In this document: positions 4,998 through 55,181 of the stretch, one piece after another
How the letters are laid out: each line of letters begins with the position of its first letter
Position numbering within the stretch: position 1 is the first letter of the stretch
Assembly: GCF_013344475.1 (NCBI RefSeq)
Contig: NZ_JABUOU010000001.1
Coordinates: 682,001 to 746,000 of the forward strand
Source of the DNA: Martelella limonii
Lineage (GTDB): Bacteria; Pseudomonadota; Alphaproteobacteria; Rhizobiales; Rhizobiaceae
Reading direction: 5' to 3'
Length of the DNA: 64,000 nt
Notes under the pieces: generated by a model
What the model saw: only the letters and a program-made list of their open reading frames with translations
What the model was told of the DNA's origin: nothing
Database searches by the model: none
Position numbers and translations under genes: made by a program

Positions 4998-5207
4998 GCG
5001 ATCGTTCCCTGCGTTACCGCAGAGCCACCCAATCGTCTCGCCCCGGAGGGGAGAGATGTCGCGACAGCGACAGTGAGGGGGGAGACTATCAACGAGAACG
5101 CCCTCACAGCTTTCGGAAGCTGCATCACCCTCACTGCCCCTTTCGGGGCATCTCTCCCGCAGGCGGGAGAGAGTATGAGGAGCAAACAGAGAGGCTTCAT
5201 GCAACAA
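4998..5207. repeat. RIME-like palindromic intergenic element, copy 1
   Basis: About 210 bases between queA and the cyclophilin gene form a large imperfect inverted repeat with a core of roughly 5030-5174. The left arm begins TCTCGCCCCGGAGGGGAGAG and contains its own small hairpin. The right arm (about 5125-5174), read in reverse complement, repeats the same order of motifs: TCTCTCCCGCCTGCGGGAGA followed by an ATGCCCCGAAAGGGG-type hairpin and CAGTGAGGG. A second copy of similar length lies at 24754-24960, inside a coding sequence. The architecture resembles the Rhizobium-specific intergenic mosaic elements (RIME); the family name is an inference from architecture, while the two-copy similarity is visible directly. 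The element carries no gene. Confidence 0.85.
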
Positions 5208-5249: not shown

Positions 5250-5759
5250 TCAGGCGTCAGCCGCAACCTTCATCGTGATGATGTGGTCGGGATCGCGCAC
5301 CGGTTCGCCCTTCTGGAACTTGTCGACGGCGTCCATGCCCTCGATCACCTGGCCCCAGACCGAATACTGCTTGTCGAGCCACGGGGCATCGGTGAAGCAG
5401 ATGAAGAACTGGGAGTTGGCGGAGTTCGGGTTCTGCGAACGGGCCATCGAGCATGTGCCGCGCACGTGACGGGTGGCGGAGAATTCGGCCGGAAGGTCCG
5501 GCTTGTCGGAACCGCCCGTGCCGGCACGGCCCGGATTGAACTTGTCCGAGGTCTTCTTGCCGTGCTGGACGTCGCCGCCCTGCGCCATGAAGTCGGCAAT
5601 CACGCGGTGGAACACGACGCCGTCATAGGCGCCCTCGCGCACCAGTTCGCGGATGCGATCGACATGCTTCGGGGCGACATTCGGAAACGCCTCGATCACG
5701 ACCTTTCCCTTGGTCGTTTCCATGATGAAGGTGTTTTCCGGGTCCTTGATTTCGGCCAT
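5250..5759 (-). CDS. ppiB: Cytoplasmic peptidyl-prolyl cis-trans isomerase (cyclophilin type)
   Basis: A 169-residue single-domain cyclophilin that catalyses cis-trans isomerisation of prolyl bonds. Diagnostic residues are present: FHRVIADFMAQGGD (catalytic Arg in FHR, with FMAQGGD), the MARSQNPNSANSQFFI block, and WLDKQYSVWGQVIEGMD. There is no signal peptide, unlike its upstream neighbour, so it should act in the cytosol. Two adjacent ATG codons occur; the second (5759) is chosen because it lies about seven bases from AGGAG, and the alternative start is 5762. It follows the periplasmic paralogue by 57 bases on the same strand, probably in one operon with coaD. The pair looks like an old tandem duplication with different localisation. 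Confidence 0.95.
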   Translation of the reverse strand: MAEIKDPENTFIMETTKGKVVIEAFPNVAPKHVDRIRELVREGAYDGVVFHRVIADFMAQGGDVQHGKKTSDKFNPGRAGTGGSDKPDLPAEFSATRHVRGTCSMARSQNPNSANSQFFICFTDAPWLDKQYSVWGQVIEGMDAVDKFQKGEPVRDPDHIITMKVAADA

Positions 5760-5819
5760 CATTCTCTCCTGTGGCGGGTTGCCCGCCCTGCCGGGTTCGA
5801 CAGGGCGGGTTCATGAATT

Positions 5820-6383
<564 letters not shown>

Positions 6384-10840: not shown

Positions 10841-10873
10841 AAGGGCGCGATACCAGTTCCTGGCCGCGCCCTT
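10841..10873. terminator. Hairpin with T-run, probable terminator
   Basis: AAGGGCGCG pairs with CGCGCCCTT, with an inner CCAG/CTGG pairing. The minus-strand exit is TTTTTATTT, typical of an intrinsic terminator; the plus-strand exit is the weaker AGTTTGTT. It sits 69 bases after marC and could end marC transcripts, or read-through from the ssb side on the minus strand. Copies of the same hairpin begin the next two repeat units. Confidence 0.6.
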
Positions 10874-10984
10874 AGTTTGTTGAGAAACATGTCCTGAAGC
10901 TCGGCGTCATACTGCGCTGGCCACGAAGATCCTGGCAGCAGGGTAAGCGTCGCAATAAGGCTTAAGAGATTCAATCATTCGAGC

Positions 10985-11017
10985 CGCCTGGATGCTCGGA
11001 TCAAGTCCGAGCATGAC
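10985..11017 (+). repeat. REP-type hairpin, ATGCTCGG type
   Basis: GCCTGG followed by ATGCTCGGA-TCAAG-TCCGAGCAT and GACC. It is the first of eight REP-like copies in this window and is embedded in unit 1 of the 238-base tandem repeat. Confidence 0.75.
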
Positions 11018-11223
11018 CCCTGTGGGTGCTCTTGGCGGGATTGACAATCTCAGAGGCGATGGCTTTGTGAGCAGCCTGAGGGAGCGGCACCAGATCCCGG
11101 CCGCGCCCTTCGTTTGTTGAGGAACATGACCTGAAGCTCGGCGTCATACTGCCCTCGACACGAGGATCCGGGCAGCAGGGGAAGCGTTCGCAGTAAGGCT
11201 CAAGAAATTCAATCATTCGAGCC

Positions 11224-11255
11224 GCCTGGATGCTCGGATCCAGTCCGAGCAAGAC
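11224..11255 (+). repeat. REP-type hairpin, ATGCTCGG type, degraded
   Basis: This is the unit-2 counterpart of the copy at 10985. The stem ATGCTCGGA/TCCGAGCAA has lost one pair at its base, and the 3' flank reads AGACC instead of TGACC. It is consistent with drift after the tandem duplication. Confidence 0.7.
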
Positions 11256-11391
11256 CCTCTGTGGGTGCTCTTGGCGGGATTGACAATCTCAGAGGCGATG
11301 GCTTTGTGAACAGCCTGAGGGAGCGGTACCAGATCCTGGCCGCTCCCTCTTAATCTGTGGTCCGCTCTATCAGTCGCGGTCAGACCGCCGA

Positions 11392-23510: not shown

Positions 23511-23538
23511 GCCCGCCGCGCACGTCTCCCTACCTCTA

Positions 23539-23619
23539 GGGTCATGCTCGGGCTTGACCCGAGCATCCAGGCAGCACGGAGAACGTCGCCTGGACCCTCG
23601 GGTCAAGCCCGAGGGTGAC
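23539..23619. repeat. REP pair, head to head (one ATGCTCGG and one ACCCTCGG type)
   Basis: The first hairpin (23539-23571) is the reverse-strand ATGCTCGGG type; the second (23588-23619) is the forward ACCCTCGGG type. Each has a 9-base stem around a TCAAG or CTTGA loop, with the conserved GCCTGG flank on the inside and GGTCA/TGAC on the outside. About 16 bases separate them. They lie between the YejA-like and FrnE-like genes. Confidence 0.85.
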
Positions 23620-23682
23620 ACCGCAGGGGGATGAGCAGGCAAGGCGGCCAGACCGTGTATCCTATTCTAGGAAAGGAACCCC

Positions 23683-24327
23683 ATGTCCACCGTAACAGTC
23701 GATGCCATCATTGATGTCGTTTGCCCGTGGTGCTATCTCGGCAAGGCGCGTCTCGACAAGGCGATCAAGGCGATGCCCGAGGGCACCGAGGTCGTGGTGC
23801 AGTGGCGGCCGTTCGAGCTTGATTCGAGCGTGCCTGCGGAAGGCGTCGACAATCAGGCGATGCTTGCCGAAAAGCTCGGCAGCGCCGAACGCCGCGACGA
23901 GATGCACGCGCAGATCACCGCGCTCGGCAGGGAGCTCGGCATCACCTTCCATTTTGACAGGATCCTGATCCGCCCCAATACGCTTGATGCGCACCGCCTG
24001 CTGCTCTGGGCCCATACAGAGAGCATCGCGATGCAGAACGAAGTGATCGACCGGCTTTATCGCGCCAATTTCGAGGAAGGTCGCAATATCGGCGATCACA
24101 AGGTGCTGGCGGATATTGCGGCCGAAGCAGGCATGGACCGCGCGATGGTGGAAAAGCTGCTGGCGAGCGATGCCGACCGCGACATGGTGCGCGGCGAAAT
24201 CGCCAATGCCCAGCAGATGGGCGTCACCGGCGTGCCGTTCTTCGTCTTCAACGGCAAATATGCCGTCAGTGGCGCACAGCCCGTCGAAGTGATGCAGCAG
24301 GCGCTGAGCCAGCTTGCCGCGGCGTAA
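23683..24327 (+). CDS. DsbA family (FrnE-like) oxidoreductase
   Basis: A 214-residue thioredoxin-fold protein of the FrnE subgroup of the DsbA family. The active site is CPWC in VVCPWCYLGKARLD (cysteines near 14 and 17), the cis-proline loop is GVTGVPFFVFNGKYAVSGAQP (~185-205), and the inserted helical domain between them includes RPNTLDAHRLLLWAH. No signal peptide is present, so it is cytoplasmic; FrnE proteins act as disulfide isomerases or oxidoreductases, some linked to oxidative stress. AAAGGA lies about eight bases upstream of the ATG. The methyltransferase gene starts six bases after its stop. Confidence 0.92.
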   Translation: MSTVTVDAIIDVVCPWCYLGKARLDKAIKAMPEGTEVVVQWRPFELDSSVPAEGVDNQAMLAEKLGSAERRDEMHAQITALGRELGITFHFDRILIRPNTLDAHRLLLWAHTESIAMQNEVIDRLYRANFEEGRNIGDHKVLADIAAEAGMDRAMVEKLLASDADRDMVRGEIANAQQMGVTGVPFFVFNGKYAVSGAQPVEVMQQALSQLAAA

Positions 24328-24333
24328 ACGCGT

Positions 24334-25227
24334 TTGGACGCCTTTCGCGAAATCGTCGATTCCCGGCTGCCGGTCACCCCGGTTCCGGGCCTTTCTTCGC
24401 TCAAGCTCCATCTCGCAAACGAGCAAAGCGGGCTCGGGCGGCTGCTTGCCGAGCTCGGCGGGGCGCTTTCGCCCTATTGGGCGCATGTCTGGGCTGGCGG
24501 GCTGGCTCTGGCGCGCCATATCGAGGCTGAGCCGGATGCTGTCCGCGACCGCACGGTGATCGACTACGGAAGCGGCTCGGGGCTGGTCGCGATCGCGGCT
24601 GCAAAAGCTGGCGCACGCACGGTCATCGCTTGCGATATCGATCCGCTCGCACTGGAAGCCGGTTCGATCAATGCCGCGCTCAATGGCGTGGAGATCCAAA
24701 CGCTCCTCATAGAACGCGGGCGGAATGGTTCTGCTCGACTGGAACTCCTCGAAGCGATCGCCCATGACACTGCCGCAAAGCCCCCCAATCTTCTCGCCCC
24801 GGAGGGGAGAGATGGCCCGAAAGGGCCAGTGAGGGGGGAGACCCACCCCGCGAACGCCGTTGCGACTGGATACGCTGCATCACCCTCACTGCCCCTGTCG
24901 GGGCATCTCTCCCGCAGGCGGGAGAGAGTATCGAGAGCAAGCTGCAAGGCAGAGTGCAACGCGCCTGCCGCCAATCCGGAGCCATTTGTCGTCATGGCCG
25001 GCGACGTGTTTTACGATGCCAGAACCGCCGCGCGAACGCTGGAAAACCTGAACGCTCTCGCGGATGCAGGGGCCGATATCCTCATCGGCGATCCCTTCCG
25101 CGCCCATCTGCCGACGGAGCATCTGATCCCGATCGCGCGATACGCGGTGACCGATTTTGCCTCACGCGGCAAACCGGTCACCGCCGGCGTTTTCAGGCTG
25201 CGGCCAGCTTCGCGAGCTTGTTCATGA
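24334..25227 (+). CDS. Class I SAM-dependent methyltransferase with an in-frame RIME-like insertion
   Basis: The 297-residue frame resembles the ETFB/Nnt1-type protein methyltransferases. Motif I is [16 protein letters not shown] (75-90), the acidic residue after strand 2 is D101 in [11 protein letters not shown], and AGDVFYD is at 222-228. In relatives only about 15-20 residues separate the NGVEI region from the AGDVFY motif; here there are about 100. The extra segment (~125-215) includes translated RIME-like DNA (150-203), rich in Gly, Pro, Ser and Arg. The frame stays open across it and both flanks are in register, so it is an in-frame insertion, not a frameshift. Start is TTG 24334, coupled to the FrnE gene; no better start fits. 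The last 35 bases overlap the convergent mfd end. Activity is uncertain because the insertion sits near the SAM pocket. Confidence 0.75.
24754..24960. repeat. RIME-like palindromic element, copy 2 (inside a coding sequence)
   Basis: Core at about 24786-24929, with similarity to copy 1 (4998-5207) extending from GCGATCG to GTGCAAC on either side. The left arm has TCTCGCCCCGGAGGGGAGAG and GGCCCGAAAGGGCC; the right arm carries the matching inverted motifs CCCCTGTCGGGG and CTCTCCCGCAGGCGGGAGAG. The middle (about 24842-24880) differs most between copies. It lies entirely within the methyltransferase frame. Confidence 0.88.
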
Positions 25228-28200
25228 TGATTGCCGCCTGGCCGAGACGCTTGTCCGGCGTCGGAAGGTCGCGGTTGAAATAGATGCTGTGATCGGCGCG
25301 GATCTTGGCCGAGACGCTGTTTTCCGCGATGAACTGCACGAGGCCCGCAGGGTTGGGGAATTCGCGGTTGCGGAACTGCACGACGACGCCTTTCGGCCCG
25401 GCATCGAGCTTTTCGACATTGGCGATGCGGCAGAGCGACTTGATGAAGACGACCTTCAGCAGCGACTGCACCTCGTCCGGCATCGGCCCGAACCGGTCGA
25501 TCAGCTCTGCGCCGAAGGCATCGATATCGCCGGCATCGGTGAGTTCGCCAAGCCTGCGATAGAGCCCCATGCGAAGATTGAGGTCCGGGACGTAATATTC
25601 CGGGATCATCACCGATGTGCCGAGCGCGATCTGCGGCGACCAGTCGGAGCCGCCGGCATCCTCGTCGCCCTTGGCCTCGGCCACCGCTTCCTCCAGCATC
25701 TGCTGGTAGAGCTCGAAGCCGACCTCCTTGATGTGGCCTGACTGTTCCTCGCCGAGCAGATTGCCCGCGCCGCGAATATCGAGGTCGTGGCTCGCGAGCT
25801 GGAAGCCAGCGCCCAATGTGTCGAGCGACTGCAGCACCTTCAGCCGCCGGTCGGCAGTGTCGGTAAGCCGCTTGTTGACCGGCAGGGTGAAGACCGCGAA
25901 GGCGCGCGTCTTTGAGCGACCGACGCGCCCGCGCAACTGATAGAGCTGGGCAAGGCCAAACATGTCGGCGCGGTGGACGATGAGCGTATTGGCAGTCGGC
26001 ACGTCGAGGCCGGATTCCACGATCGTCGTCGACAGCAGCACGTCATACTTGCCGTCGTAGAAGGCGTTCATGATGTCTTCGAGCTGACCCGCGGCCATCT
26101 GGCCGTGGGCGACCGCGACCTTCAGCTCCGGCACATCCGATTGCAGGAAGGCCTGAACCTCCTCCAGATCGGAAAGCCGCGGGCAGACGTAGAAACTCTG
26201 ACCGCCGCGGAAATGCTCGCGCATCAGCGTTTCGCGGATCACCAGCGGATCGAATGGCGAGATGAAGGTTCTGACCGCCATCCGATCGACGGGCGGCGTG
26301 GTGATCAGCGACAATTCGCGCACACCGGTCATGGCGAGCTGCAGCGTGCGCGGGATCGGCGTCGCCGAGAGCGTGAGCACGTGAACGTCGCTCTTCAGTT
26401 CCTTGAGCCGCTCCTTGTGCTTGACCCCGAAATGCTGCTCCTCGTCGATGATCAACAGTCCGAGATTGGCGAAATTGATCGAAGTTCCAAGCAGGGCGTG
26501 GGTGCCGACAACCACGTCGAGCTTGCCGTCCGCAAGATCCTTCTTGGTCTGCGCCAGTTCCTTCGCCGGCACCAGGCGCGAGGCCTGAGCGACCTTGATC
26601 GGCAGGCCACGAAACCGCTCTGCGAAGGTCTTGTAATGCTGGCGCGCCAGCAGCGTGGTCGGCACCACCACGGCGACCTGAACGCCGTTCATGGCCGCAA
26701 GGAAAGCCGCGCGCAGCGCCACTTCCGTCTTGCCGAAACCGACATCGCCACAGATCAGCCGGTCCATCGGGCGGCCGAGGCCCAGATCACCGCGCACCGC
26801 TTCGATTGCGTTGAACTGATCCTCTGTTTCTTCATAGGGGAAGCGGGCGGCGAACTCGTCGTAAAGCCCTTCGGCAGCGGCGAGTACCGGCGCGGAACGG
26901 GTGGCGCGCTTGGCCGCGATCGCAATCAGCTCGTCTGCCATGTCGAGCAGGCGCTTCTTCAGCCGCGCCTTCTTCGCCTGCCATGCACCGCCGCCGAGGC
27001 GGTCGAGCGGCGCTTCGCTGGCATCCGAGCCATAGCGCGAAAGAAGCTCGATGTTTTCGACCGGCAGGAACAGCTTGGCATCATCGGCATATTGCAGTTC
27101 CAGGCAATCGCGCGGCGCGCCTGCCGCCTCGATGGTTCTAAGCCCGATGAAGCGTCCAATGCCGTGTTCGGCATGAACCACATATGAGCCGGCATCGAGA
27201 CCGGAGACTTCCGAAATGAAGTCGCTCGCCTTGCGCCGCCGCTTGTTCTTGCGGATCAGCCGGTCGCCGAGAATGTCCTGCTCGCCGATGACGTACAGAT
27301 TGCCGGTCTCGAAACCGCCCTCAAGGCTCAGAACCGCGCTGGCGGCCTCGCCCTTGCCGAGCTTTTCGACATCAGCAAGCGCTGCAACGGGCTTGATCTT
27401 TTCAAGTCCGTGCTCCTTCAGCACTTGCAGAAGCCGGTCGAGCGAGCCTTCGGACCAGCCCGTGATCAGAACCTTGCCGCCGCTGGCACGAGTATCTGCA
27501 ATATGGCGCACCGCCTGCTCGAACACGTTGACGCGCGTGTCGTCATTCAGCGCCTTGGCTTCGGCCGCCCAGCGCGGGCCGGCATGGGCCTCGAGTGCGA
27601 TCACCGGCTTTCCGACGCTCGATGCTTCGTTGAACGGCGACACGCGGATGGCACCGGTCGCATCAAGGCCCGCCGCAAAGCTCTTGTCGCTCAGATAGAG
27701 CATATCCGGCGGCACGGGCTTGTAGGGCGCGCCGCCGCGCGCCTCGCCCATATTGGTGCGCCGGGCCTGGTAATAGTCCTCGATCAGCGTTGCGCGCTCA
27801 ACCGCTGCTTCGCGCGCGGTATGATCGACGACAATACGAAAACCGCCGAGATAGTCGAACATGGTTTCCAGCCGCTCGTAGAACAGCGGCAACCAGTGTT
27901 CCATGCCGGCGTAGCGGCGGCCTTCGGATACGGCCTGATAGAGCGCATCGTCGCGATTGGCCGCGCCGAACATCGACAGGTAGTTCTTTCTGAAGCGCGC
28001 AATGTTCTCCTCGCCGAGCGTGACCTCGCTCATGGCGTTGAGTTCCAGCGCCTTGACCGTGCCGGTGGTGCGCTGCGTGGCGGCATCGAAGGCGCGGATC
28101 GTCTCCAGCGTATCGCCGAAGAAATCGAGGCGGACGCCGTTGTCGGCGCCCGGCACGAAGACATCGAGAATGCCGCCGCGCACCGCATATTCACCCACGG

Positions 28201-28684
28201 CGCGCACCGTCGGCACGCGCTCGAAACCGGCATCCGCGAGCCGATGGACGATGCCGTCCATGTCGATCACCTGGCCGGCGCGGGCGGAAAAGCCGAGCGA
28301 GGCGACAACGTCACGCGGCGGCAGCTTCTGCAGCATGGCGTTGACGGTCACGAGGATGATGGCCGGATGGGGCTTCTTTGCATGCGCCACGAGCCCGGCA
28401 AGCGCCGACAGCCGCCGCGCTTCGGTATCGGCGCCGGGCGAAACCCGGTCATAGGGCAGGCAGTCCCAAGCGGGCAGCGTGAGGACCGGAATATCCGGCG
28501 CGGCGAAGGCGAGCATCTGCTCGAAATCGGCGATCCGCTGGCCATCGGAGAGCACATAGGCGACGGACTGCCCGGCGCGCGCCATTTCCGCCAGCACCAG
28601 CGGCTCCGTTCCCGGAACCGCATTGGCGATGGTGACGGCGCCGGAGAGATTATCGAGCTTTTTCGGGTTAAATCCGGAAATCAT
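25193..28684 (-). CDS. mfd: Transcription-repair coupling factor
   Basis: Mfd displaces RNA polymerase stalled at lesions and recruits UvrA. The 1163-residue length is normal. Domains in order: a UvrB-like N-terminal region, the RNA-polymerase-interacting CarD-type domain ([25 protein letters not shown], ~490-515), then a RecG-like SF2 translocase. The latter has Walker [18 protein letters not shown] and the DEEQ box [14 protein letters not shown], plus the TRG-type [25 protein letters not shown]. The C-terminal domain runs to the end. The start [17 protein letters not shown] is family-like. sdhE ends nine bases upstream on the same strand, so the two are probably co-transcribed. Confidence 0.98.
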
Positions 28685-31187: not shown

Positions 31188-31281
31188 GCGTTTTCGGAGG
31201 GTTTGCCGCGTGGCGAGCGAGGGAGCCGCGCTGGGCATGACGGACGTCGTCGCAAAGGCTATGGCGCTCGTTTTGAATGTG

Positions 31282-31314
31282 GCCTGGATGCTCGGGTCAA
31301 GCCCGAGCATGACC
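31282..31314 (+). repeat. REP-type hairpin, ATGCTCGG type
   Basis: GCCTGG, then the stem ATGCTCGGG/CCCGAGCAT around TCAAG, then GACCC. It forms a widely spaced pair with the opposite-strand copy at 31431. The stretch between them (about 116 bases) shows no gene. Confidence 0.8.
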
Positions 31315-31430
31315 CAGAAAAGGAGGATGTGCCGCCGTTCCGCGTTTTCGGATGGCTATCGTCTCTGCACAACTTAACTAGCCCCGTGCATCTCAGCGCG
31401 TACGGGTCACTCCCACTTTTCCCCATTCTA

Positions 31431-31467
31431 GGGTCACCCTCGGGCTCGACCCGAGGGTCCAGGCGGC
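31431..31467 (-). repeat. REP-type hairpin, ACCCTCGG type
   Basis: A minus-strand copy with the stem ACCCTCGGG/CCCGAGGGT around a CTCGA loop, flanked by GGGTC and CCAGGCGGC. It is the partner of the copy at 31282, pointing the opposite way. Confidence 0.8.
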
Positions 31468-39510: not shown

Positions 39511-39672
39511 GCGGCTTGCTTCCATTATTGTTCTTGTTATGTTCTCTTATTGACAGCAAAAGTAAAGAACTTTTTGCAGTAGGAGGCCGGATTGGAAACA
39601 TTGCGAACCGGCCGCGCAGACGCGAGATTGCAACCAAGATCTGGCGTCGCGTACCCGTGCGCCCCCTTTACG

Positions 39673-39755
39673 CGTCACCCTCGGGCTTGACCCGAGGGTC
39701 CAGGCAGCGCTCTCCGTGTCGCCTGGATGCTCGGGTCGAGCCCGAGCATGACCCA
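39673..39755. repeat. REP pair, head to head (ACCCTCGG and ATGCTCGG types)
   Basis: The first copy (39673-39708) is the minus-strand ACCCTCGGG type and the second (39721-39755) the plus-strand ATGCTCGGG type, with GCCTGG flanks facing each other 12 bases apart. It sits in the 525-base gap between the VOC gene and rplM; the rest of that gap holds an AT-rich stretch and the rplM promoter, but no gene. Confidence 0.85.
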
Positions 39756-39896
39756 GGAGAGGAAGCCAACCGCTGAAGCGGGGGCAGAAGCGTCGGTTCA
39801 GATTAACTCAGCCAGAAATCCATGTGGTAATATTATACCGCTTTTCTATCTATATGTTTTTGCTTCATTAAATAAAGCGCCATCCGATTTCCTCTC

Positions 39897-55026: not shown

Positions 55027-55066
55027 CTCATTTTTCCGTTTGAAGGTCCTGGGTTTCCTCGGGCAT

Positions 55067-55091
55067 AAAAAAAGGCCCCTTGGAGGAGCCT
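55067..55091 (-). terminator. Attenuator terminator of ilvBH
   Basis: On the minus strand AGGCTCC pairs with GGGGCCT around TCCAA and is followed by seven T. It lies 40 bases before the ilvB start and downstream of the leader peptide, the expected place for an attenuator. Confidence 0.85.
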
Positions 55092-55097
55092 GTTTGT

Positions 55098-55147
55098 CGC
55101 GCATGGGTGGCTGTCGCCGGATGGTTACACCATCCTGCCCATGCGCG
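55098..55147 (-). other. ilv leader pause hairpin
   Basis: CGCGCATGGG (55138-55147 complement) and CCCATGCGCG (55098-55107 complement) pair perfectly over ten bases, with an inner GGATGG/CCATCC stem around the leader stop codon. It overlaps the end of the leader peptide and lies just before the terminator, as in classical attenuators. Confidence 0.75.
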
Positions 55148-55181
55148 ATCCCACCACGATAAGAAGTGCGTTCATATTCAT
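55125..55181 (-). CDS. ilvL: ilvBH leader peptide
   Basis: An 18-codon frame, MNMNALLIVVGSRMGRMV, ends in TAA at 55125-55127. The LLIVV run encodes all three branched-chain amino acids in five successive codons, so ribosome stalling there would reflect their supply. The pause hairpin and terminator follow in order. The promoter -10 lies seven bases upstream of the first ATG, so the mRNA probably starts at or within a few bases of it and may be leaderless; the second ATG (55175) has AGG seven bases upstream if the transcript starts earlier. It was not expected to be found by gene-length cut-offs. It is on the same strand as ilvB, 98 bases before it. Confidence 0.83.
   Translation of the reverse strand: MNMNALLIVVGSRMGRMV

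What the first reader, a model, noticed from the sequence alone, without database searches (positions are those of the whole stretch)
24334..25227. A RIME-like palindromic element has been absorbed into a methyltransferase reading frame
Copy 2 of the repeat (24754-24960) lies inside a class I methyltransferase between the NGVEI segment and the AGDVFYD motif. The frame is open throughout and both flanks stay in register, giving about 80-100 extra residues. This recalls the Rickettsia palindromic elements that insert in frame in genes. Long survival of an open frame through a structured GC-rich element suggests tolerance or use, near a SAM-binding region.
Basis: partly seen in the sequence, partly recalled or inferred. 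Interest (0 to 1): 0.75.

Follow-up and report, generated by a model that had tools for sequence, protein, structure and literature searches.

The report
Palindromic repeat inside a methyltransferase gene
A palindromic DNA repeat that otherwise seems to sit between genes came to lie, in frame, in the middle of a methyltransferase gene in the ancestor of four Martelella bacteria, where it still adds about 80 probably floppy amino acids to an enzyme that shows no sign of having been broken.

Summary
ORF 24334-25227 (297 codons) is a class I, protein-methyltransferase-like gene. The closest homologues (216 aa) lack 81 residues between beta3 and beta4; there the window has a copy of a ~218-nt palindromic element (about 24752-24969, core 24772-24950). 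The genus is Martelella. Three of 12 congeners carry the orthologue at the same dsbA-mfd site, 297 codons each, insert included, without stop or indel; nine lack it. So the insertion predates these species; it is not recent. Flank dN/dS is 0.20-0.28, as in uninserted homologues (0.12-0.29): the gene looks alive. The insert looks like a tolerated loop: AlphaFold pLDDT about 30 beside a core mostly above 90, changes not concentrated at third codon positions, and in the window strain two base pairs swapped by four changes that alter four amino acids. Among 121 copies examined only this orthologous set showed a stop-free frame with gene-like codon scores on both sides (L139 also passed but is antisense; gene-breaking insertions were not sought), and the family consensus has two stops in this frame. 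Similarity to RIME1/2 was not found. It works like a Rickettsia palindromic element in an ORF but fails two of that family's features. A new instance of a known kind; no function of the peptide is shown.

The parts
24334..25227 (+). Class I methyltransferase gene with in-frame insert, TTG start, 297 codons
24752..24969 (.). Full palindromic element, about 218 nt; ends approximate
   Evidence: mapped; outer parts of the gene copy are degenerate
24772..24950 (.). Conserved core of the element, two inverted modules
24792..24812 (+). Hairpin 1 of the left module (broken by two changes in G006)
24813..24828 (+). Hairpin 2 of the left module; pairs 24815/24826 and 24817/24824 both swapped in the window strain
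24890..24905 (+). Hairpin 1 of the right module
24906..24927 (+). Hairpin 2 of the right module
24778..24780 (+). Codon AAG where 33 of 61 ungapped other copies have TAG
24868..24870 (+). Codon GGA where 29 of 61 ungapped other copies have TGA
24985..25002 (+). Strand beta4 (residues 218-223), which leads into the GDVFYD motif
4998..5205 (+). Other copy of the element in the window
23683..24327 (+). DsbA-family gene, upstream neighbour
25193..28684 (-). mfd, convergent neighbour, overlaps the methyltransferase by 35 bp

Best explanation
In the common ancestor of four Martelella species a stop-free copy of a palindromic element (~218 nt), known otherwise from between genes, came to lie in frame in the beta3-beta4 loop of a class I protein-methyltransferase-like gene situated between dsbA and mfd (shown: presence, site, frame, shared ancestry). 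The 81 added residues form a disordered loop beside the SAM-binding Rossmann core (predicted), so the enzyme stayed functional (inferred) under ordinary purifying selection (shown for the flanks). Since then the insert has stayed open and of constant length, most likely because the downstream strands beta4-beta7 must be translated (inferred), while inside it the palindrome drifts largely as nucleic acid; two paired changes in one strain alter the peptide (shown; whether by templated correction of the hairpin or by selection on it is open).
For: 13 other strong copies in the genome; 121 copies examined. The 18 uninserted homologues aligned all lack the insert at this loop. Four orthologues of 297 codons, no stop, one clade with support 100/100. 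Of 13 dsbA loci, 4 have the gene between dsbA and mfd, 8 have dsbA and mfd 16-250 bp apart without it, 1 (G002) shows neither gene nor mfd in the flank. Flank dN/dS 0.20-0.28, against 0.12-0.29 in six pairs of uninserted homologues and 0.14-0.30 in the paralogue. Core indels: 0 of 6 species pairs for the gene copy, 37 of 56 for other copies at matching sites. Open and in register in this frame: 4 of 4 gene copies, 16 of 114 others. Model from 38 sequences: residues 146-212 below pLDDT 50, between strands 122-125 and 218-223, core mostly above 90. Differences by codon position: element 15/9/13, flanks 47/45/124 over two non-overlapping species pairs, Fisher p 0.013 for third positions. Paired swaps 24815/24826 and 24817/24824.
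Against: No expression or activity data. Random substitution leaves all four inserts open with probability 0.047 or 0.038, so selection on the open frame rests only moderately on stops. The species pairs behind the indel count are not independent, and alignment ends may add gaps. Codon scores of the flanks (-0.04 to 0.13) are below the 5% point (0.24) of the three training genes. pN/pS in the element falls to 0.39-0.56 in the three pairs without G000, so some protein-level constraint is not excluded. Two changes in G006 break hairpin 1 uncompensated. About 25 of the 243 extra nucleotides are not explained by the element. The stem of the four-species clade is long (1.41 changes per column; other groups 1.25 and 1.32).
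Confidence: 0.8

Rival explanations
1. The insert has been put to use as protein: its peptide changes substrate binding or partners, and is selected as such.
For: Kept open and without indel in four species; pN/pS 0.39-0.56 in the three pairs without G000; some residues of the insert invariant in the four, e.g. [11 protein letters not shown].
Against: pN/pS 0.90-1.12 in the pairs with G000; the invariant stretch is equally invariant as DNA in untranslated copies; predicted disordered; four amino acids changed by two base-pair swaps.
Confidence: 0.1
2. The palindrome is selected as a nucleic-acid structure (mRNA hairpin, DNA cruciform) inside the coding sequence.
For: Two compensated pairs in G000, the first swapped type (G-C) in none of 113 other copies; RNA z-score -3.3 for 24752-24969; low silent divergence in the element (pS 0.14-0.22 with G000 against 0.38-0.45 in the flanks).
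Against: Untranslated copies keep the same pairs, so no function particular to this gene is needed; G006 breaks hairpin 1; with 30-nt flanks the gene copies fold more weakly than 86-104 of 114 others; templated mutation alone can make paired changes (recalled).
Confidence: 0.2
3. The gene is a decaying relic whose frame is open by chance.
For: Nine of 12 congeners lack the gene; a paralogue is present in all 13 genomes; low codon scores; TTG start.
Against: Flank dN/dS 0.20-0.28, equal to uninserted homologues; four of four intact; chance of four open inserts 0.04-0.05.
Confidence: 0.07
4. The four species acquired the loop independently, or the copy was later overwritten by gene conversion from other copies.
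For: Gene copies are about as close to other copies as to each other; no non-consensus core state is shared by all four except 24821, where both bases are common.
Against: Linkers outside the core are homologous in the four; same length; orthologous copies elsewhere diverge to the same degree. Conversion after a single insertion is not excluded.
Confidence: 0.08

Closest known systems
Rickettsia palindromic elements (RPE) in ORFs (PMC10969869 and PMC3767692, passages read; Ogata 2000 and 2002 not held)
   Same: Short palindromic repeat in frame inside a gene, shared by orthologues at the same place.
   Different: Some RPE families are often in ORFs and encode a conserved peptide; here one orthologous set among 121 copies, and the consensus has two stops in this frame. 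No RPE sequence was compared.
ERIC and other enterobacterial repeat units fused to ORFs (PMC2759123, passages read)
   Same: Mainly intergenic repeat that can fuse in frame with a gene.
   Different: Other hosts; sequences not compared; here inside a conserved enzyme, with selection data from four species.
RIME1/RIME2 and A, B, C motifs of rhizobia (PMC2573895, passages read; Osteras 1995 not held)
   Same: Intergenic palindromic mosaic of the Rhizobiales (architecture of RIMEs recalled).
   Different: No match to Sinorhizobium records in the plasmid collection at E 1e-5; about 218 nt with inverted ends.
Seven-beta-strand protein methyltransferases: PrmA, METTL21, FAM86A, METTL20 (PMC10238732, passages read)
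   Same: Fold and family hits.
   Different: 81-residue loop between beta3 and beta4; substrate unknown.

Membership tests
In-frame insertion of a small palindromic repeat (the kind of event) | Insert belongs to a multi-copy palindromic family | tested here: met
In-frame insertion of a small palindromic repeat (the kind of event) | Homologues without it align on both sides in register | tested here: met
   18 of 18 uninserted rows
In-frame insertion of a small palindromic repeat (the kind of event) | Orthologues keep the frame | tested here: met
   4 of 4
In-frame insertion of a small palindromic repeat (the kind of event) | The insert is translated | not testable with these tools
   needs proteomics or ribosome profiling
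Rickettsia palindromic elements proper | Frequent occurrence inside ORFs | tested here: not met
   one orthologous set among 121 copies by open frame and codon score; gene-breaking insertions not sought
Rickettsia palindromic elements proper | Family carries an open, conserved peptide frame | tested here: not met
   for the gene's frame: open and in register in 16 of 114 others; consensus has two stops. Other frames of the consensus are open and were not tested as peptides
Rickettsia palindromic elements proper | Sequence similarity to RPE families | not tested
   no RPE sequence fetched
RIME1/RIME2 of rhizobia | Nucleotide similarity to RIMEs | tested here: inconclusive
   no Sinorhizobium record at E 1e-5; indirect, as no labelled RIME was compared
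RIME1/RIME2 of rhizobia | Intergenic, several palindromes | tested here: met
   this gene copy is the exception
Seven-beta-strand protein methyltransferase | Conserved motifs and seven-strand fold | tested here: met
Seven-beta-strand protein methyltransferase | Methyl transfer to a protein | not testable with these tools
   needs an assay

The most novel reading that the evidence does not exclude
The palindrome inside the coding sequence is itself selected as a nucleic-acid structure, so that the protein follows the hairpin: paired nucleotide swaps rewrite the peptide (DVAKAT to DGPKGP) while pairing and frame are kept. The gene would carry two superimposed functions, an enzyme and an element.
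Probability: 0.2. Interest if true: 0.65.

Novelty: new member of a known kind. Interest (0 to 1): 0.45.

Why it matters
The review read here names Rickettsia as the group with unusually frequent in-frame palindromic repeats and asks whether the same route of protein evolution occurred elsewhere (PMC10969869, passage). Here one case outside that group can be followed through four species: the same kind of enzyme with and without the element, and over a hundred untranslated sister copies as a control. It makes testable whether palindromes in coding DNA are rewritten by hairpin logic rather than protein logic.

Tried and rejected
Other in-gene copies. Among 121 copies, 38 stop-free spanning frames with at least 45 codons upstream and 35 downstream were found. 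Ranked by codon score, only five frames had both flanks above -0.1: the four orthologues and L139. L139 is an antisense frame over an intergenic copy between two genes (NAD-synthetase-like and DAHP-synthase-like; names recalled). L006 and L148 place the element before a signal-peptide-like start after an aroA-like gene, better read as 5' untranslated (names and start recalled or inferred). Copies that break a gene were not looked for.

Rfam: nothing at gathering score over the element; five sub-threshold hits to three miRNA families reflect the long hairpin. Weaker mRNA structure in the gene copies: not for the core (33, 62, 80 and 107 of 114 others at least as stable), but with 30-nt flanks 86-104 of 114 others are at least as stable, in keeping with degenerate ends. 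The junction and any target duplication in the gene could not be fixed; one intergenic empty site (G006 against G012) shows insertion, with an uncertain right end. One search read L010 on the wrong strand; corrected. Literature: one search listed 20 of 29,005 and 8 of 446 papers; in the listed titles, and in passages of PMC9720073 and PMC8401316, no Martelella palindromic repeat was described; only this open-licence library was searched.

Full report
What is there. The window is G000, contig C1, 682001-746000. ORF 24334-25227 (+) has 297 codons from a TTG start and no internal stop. Its N-terminal part matches Pfam PrmA (E 6.6e-14), MTS and Methyltransf_16; the NCBIfam hits are all below their cut-offs. 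It lies between a DsbA-family gene (23683-24327) and the convergent mfd (25193-28684), which it overlaps by 35 bp.

The repeat. 24754-24960 pairs with 4998-5205. The genome has 14 matches with E <= 4.1e-38, the query itself included. G006, G008 and G012 gave 41 matches each at E 1e-10, with 40 of 102, 80 and 99 candidates scored, so copy numbers are lower bounds. These two calls list 137 strong matches; I examined 121 distinct copies, of which 118 had enough flank to be aligned. The conserved core is 24772-24950. Some copies match an intergenic G006 copy over its positions 478-695, about 218 nt, which maps to 24752-24969; its ends are inverted, of the type GGRCTATCGCATATG (read by eye). The core consists of two inverted modules of two hairpins each. 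As RNA, 24752-24969 folds at -98.7 kcal/mol, z -3.3. That G006 copy has an empty counterpart in G012.

Genus and spread. G008 contig C45 and the Martelella mediterranea IOP_24 contig NZ_JAINWJ010000043.1 have the same length (85610) and match, so the genus is Martelella. The genome-contig scan gave four loci, the others at 44-46% identity in unrelated taxa. In a sample of 247 family genomes from 109 genera, two matched the core at E 1e-12, both of this genus; three candidates per genome were scored, and two other congeners in the sample (G001, G007) did not match. The plasmid collection gave one record, Martelella.

With and without the insert. All 13 genomes of the genus gave a protein match, but only four (G000, G006, G008, G012) over the full gene. 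At the dsbA locus 4 of 13 have the gene between dsbA and mfd; 8 of 13 have dsbA and mfd 16-250 bp apart (between alignment ends) without it; 1 of 13 (G002) shows neither. The four are 297 codons each, without stop, 72-73% identical to the window's protein. In the family sample 188 of 247 genomes have a relative of the N-terminal part at E 1e-20. The 18 uninserted rows aligned, a chosen part, are 194-245 aa by a mechanical start choice and all lack the insert; L040 and L044 (216 aa) are 81 residues shorter. In a tree of 46 rows the four form one clade (100/100) next to L040/L044 (95/80) on a long stem of 1.41, apart from the paralogues (100/100).

Is the gene alive. Flank dN/dS is 0.20-0.28 in six species pairs; 0.12-0.29 in six pairs of uninserted homologues; 0.14-0.30 in the paralogue; 0.09-0.13 in dsbA. 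The insertion did not measurably relax selection. Against this, codon scores of the flanks are low.

How the insert evolves. In the element part (residues 147-206) differences by codon position are 12/7/8 (G000-G012) and 3/2/5 (G008-G006), against 25/31/80 and 22/14/44 in the flanks. Third positions are 13 of 37 against 124 of 216, Fisher p 0.013. pN/pS is 0.90-1.12 for the pairs with G000 and 0.39-0.56 for the other three. Core identity between species (0.80-0.94 for the gene copy) lies within the range of other copies at matching sites (0.80-0.99), and for pairs with G000 at its low end (0.80-0.86 against 0.80-0.96). Apart from 24821, where both bases are common, no non-consensus core base is shared by all four. 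In G000 pair 24815/24826 went from T-A to G-C, a type found in none of 113 other copies, and pair 24817/24824 from G-C to C-G, found in 7 of 113. The four changes turn DVAKAT into DGPKGP. In G006 two changes break hairpin 1. The palindrome is followed, not strictly kept.

How the frame is kept. The consensus has TAG at 24778 and TGA at 24868 in this frame; 33 and 29 of 61 ungapped copies carry them, 15 of 61 are open, and 16 of 114 in all are open and in register; the four gene copies are open. By a looser count, without the register, 40 of 121 are stop-free, the gene copies included. Random substitution at the observed numbers leaves all four inserts open with probability 0.047, or 0.038 with GC bias. 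The core has no indel in 6 of 6 gene pairs; 37 of 56 pairs at other matching sites have one or more; pairs are not independent, one site is counted against two neighbouring copies, and alignment ends may add gaps.

Structure. From 38 sequences AlphaFold gives mean pLDDT 76.7, core blocks mostly above 90, residues 146-212 below 50, between strands 122-125 and 218-223. Foldseek's best matches are FAM86A, METTL21B, VCP methyltransferase and PrmA; query-normalised TM-scores of the 50 listed are 0.34-0.51, lowered by the loop. A profile search of PDB sequences lists PrmA-type, PRMT and METTL21 chains among its best 60 of 87.

Interpretation. One stop-free copy came to lie in frame in a permissive loop before the four species split and has been carried along. 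Shown: shared ancestry, intact frame, normal selection on the flanks, mostly nucleic-acid-like evolution of the insert. Inferred: disorder in solution, retained activity, cause of the paired changes. The event is of the kind described for RPEs (PMC10969869, PMC3767692, passages read) and for ERIC-type repeats (PMC2759123, passages read); the family differs in being closed in this frame by consensus and, by open frames and codon scores, otherwise outside genes.

Noticed in passing
25193-25227: Methyltransferase and mfd converge and overlap by 35 bp, so the last codons of the enzyme are antisense to mfd; the overlap is present in all four species with the gene.
   Followed up: partly
10982-11266, 23529-23630, 31278-31467, 39662-39763: A second palindromic repeat family of about 47 nt occurs at eight places, partly as facing pairs; similar repeats lie between dsbA and mfd in L073 and L077 (by eye).
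   Followed up: no
10842-11348: Tandem duplication of about 238 bp (87-95% identical pieces) that contains the 47-nt repeat.
   Followed up: no
5300-6209: Two similar stretches (75-85%) 576-579 bp apart, perhaps duplicated genes, just after the other copy of the element.
   Followed up: no
L006 1374-3182, L148 875-2176: An element copy present in G000, G006 and G008 lies between an aroA-like gene and a membrane-protein-like ORF, with the frame open into the ORF; its core identity (0.94-0.99) is higher than at most sites.
   Followed up: partly
24697-24771: The linker before the element (residues 122-146) is the most diverged part of the gene (57-76% nucleotide identity), and about 25 nt of the extra length is not explained by the element.
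   Followed up: partly
55057-55179: Rfam Atu_C8, a Rhizobiales sRNA, on the minus strand.
   Followed up: no
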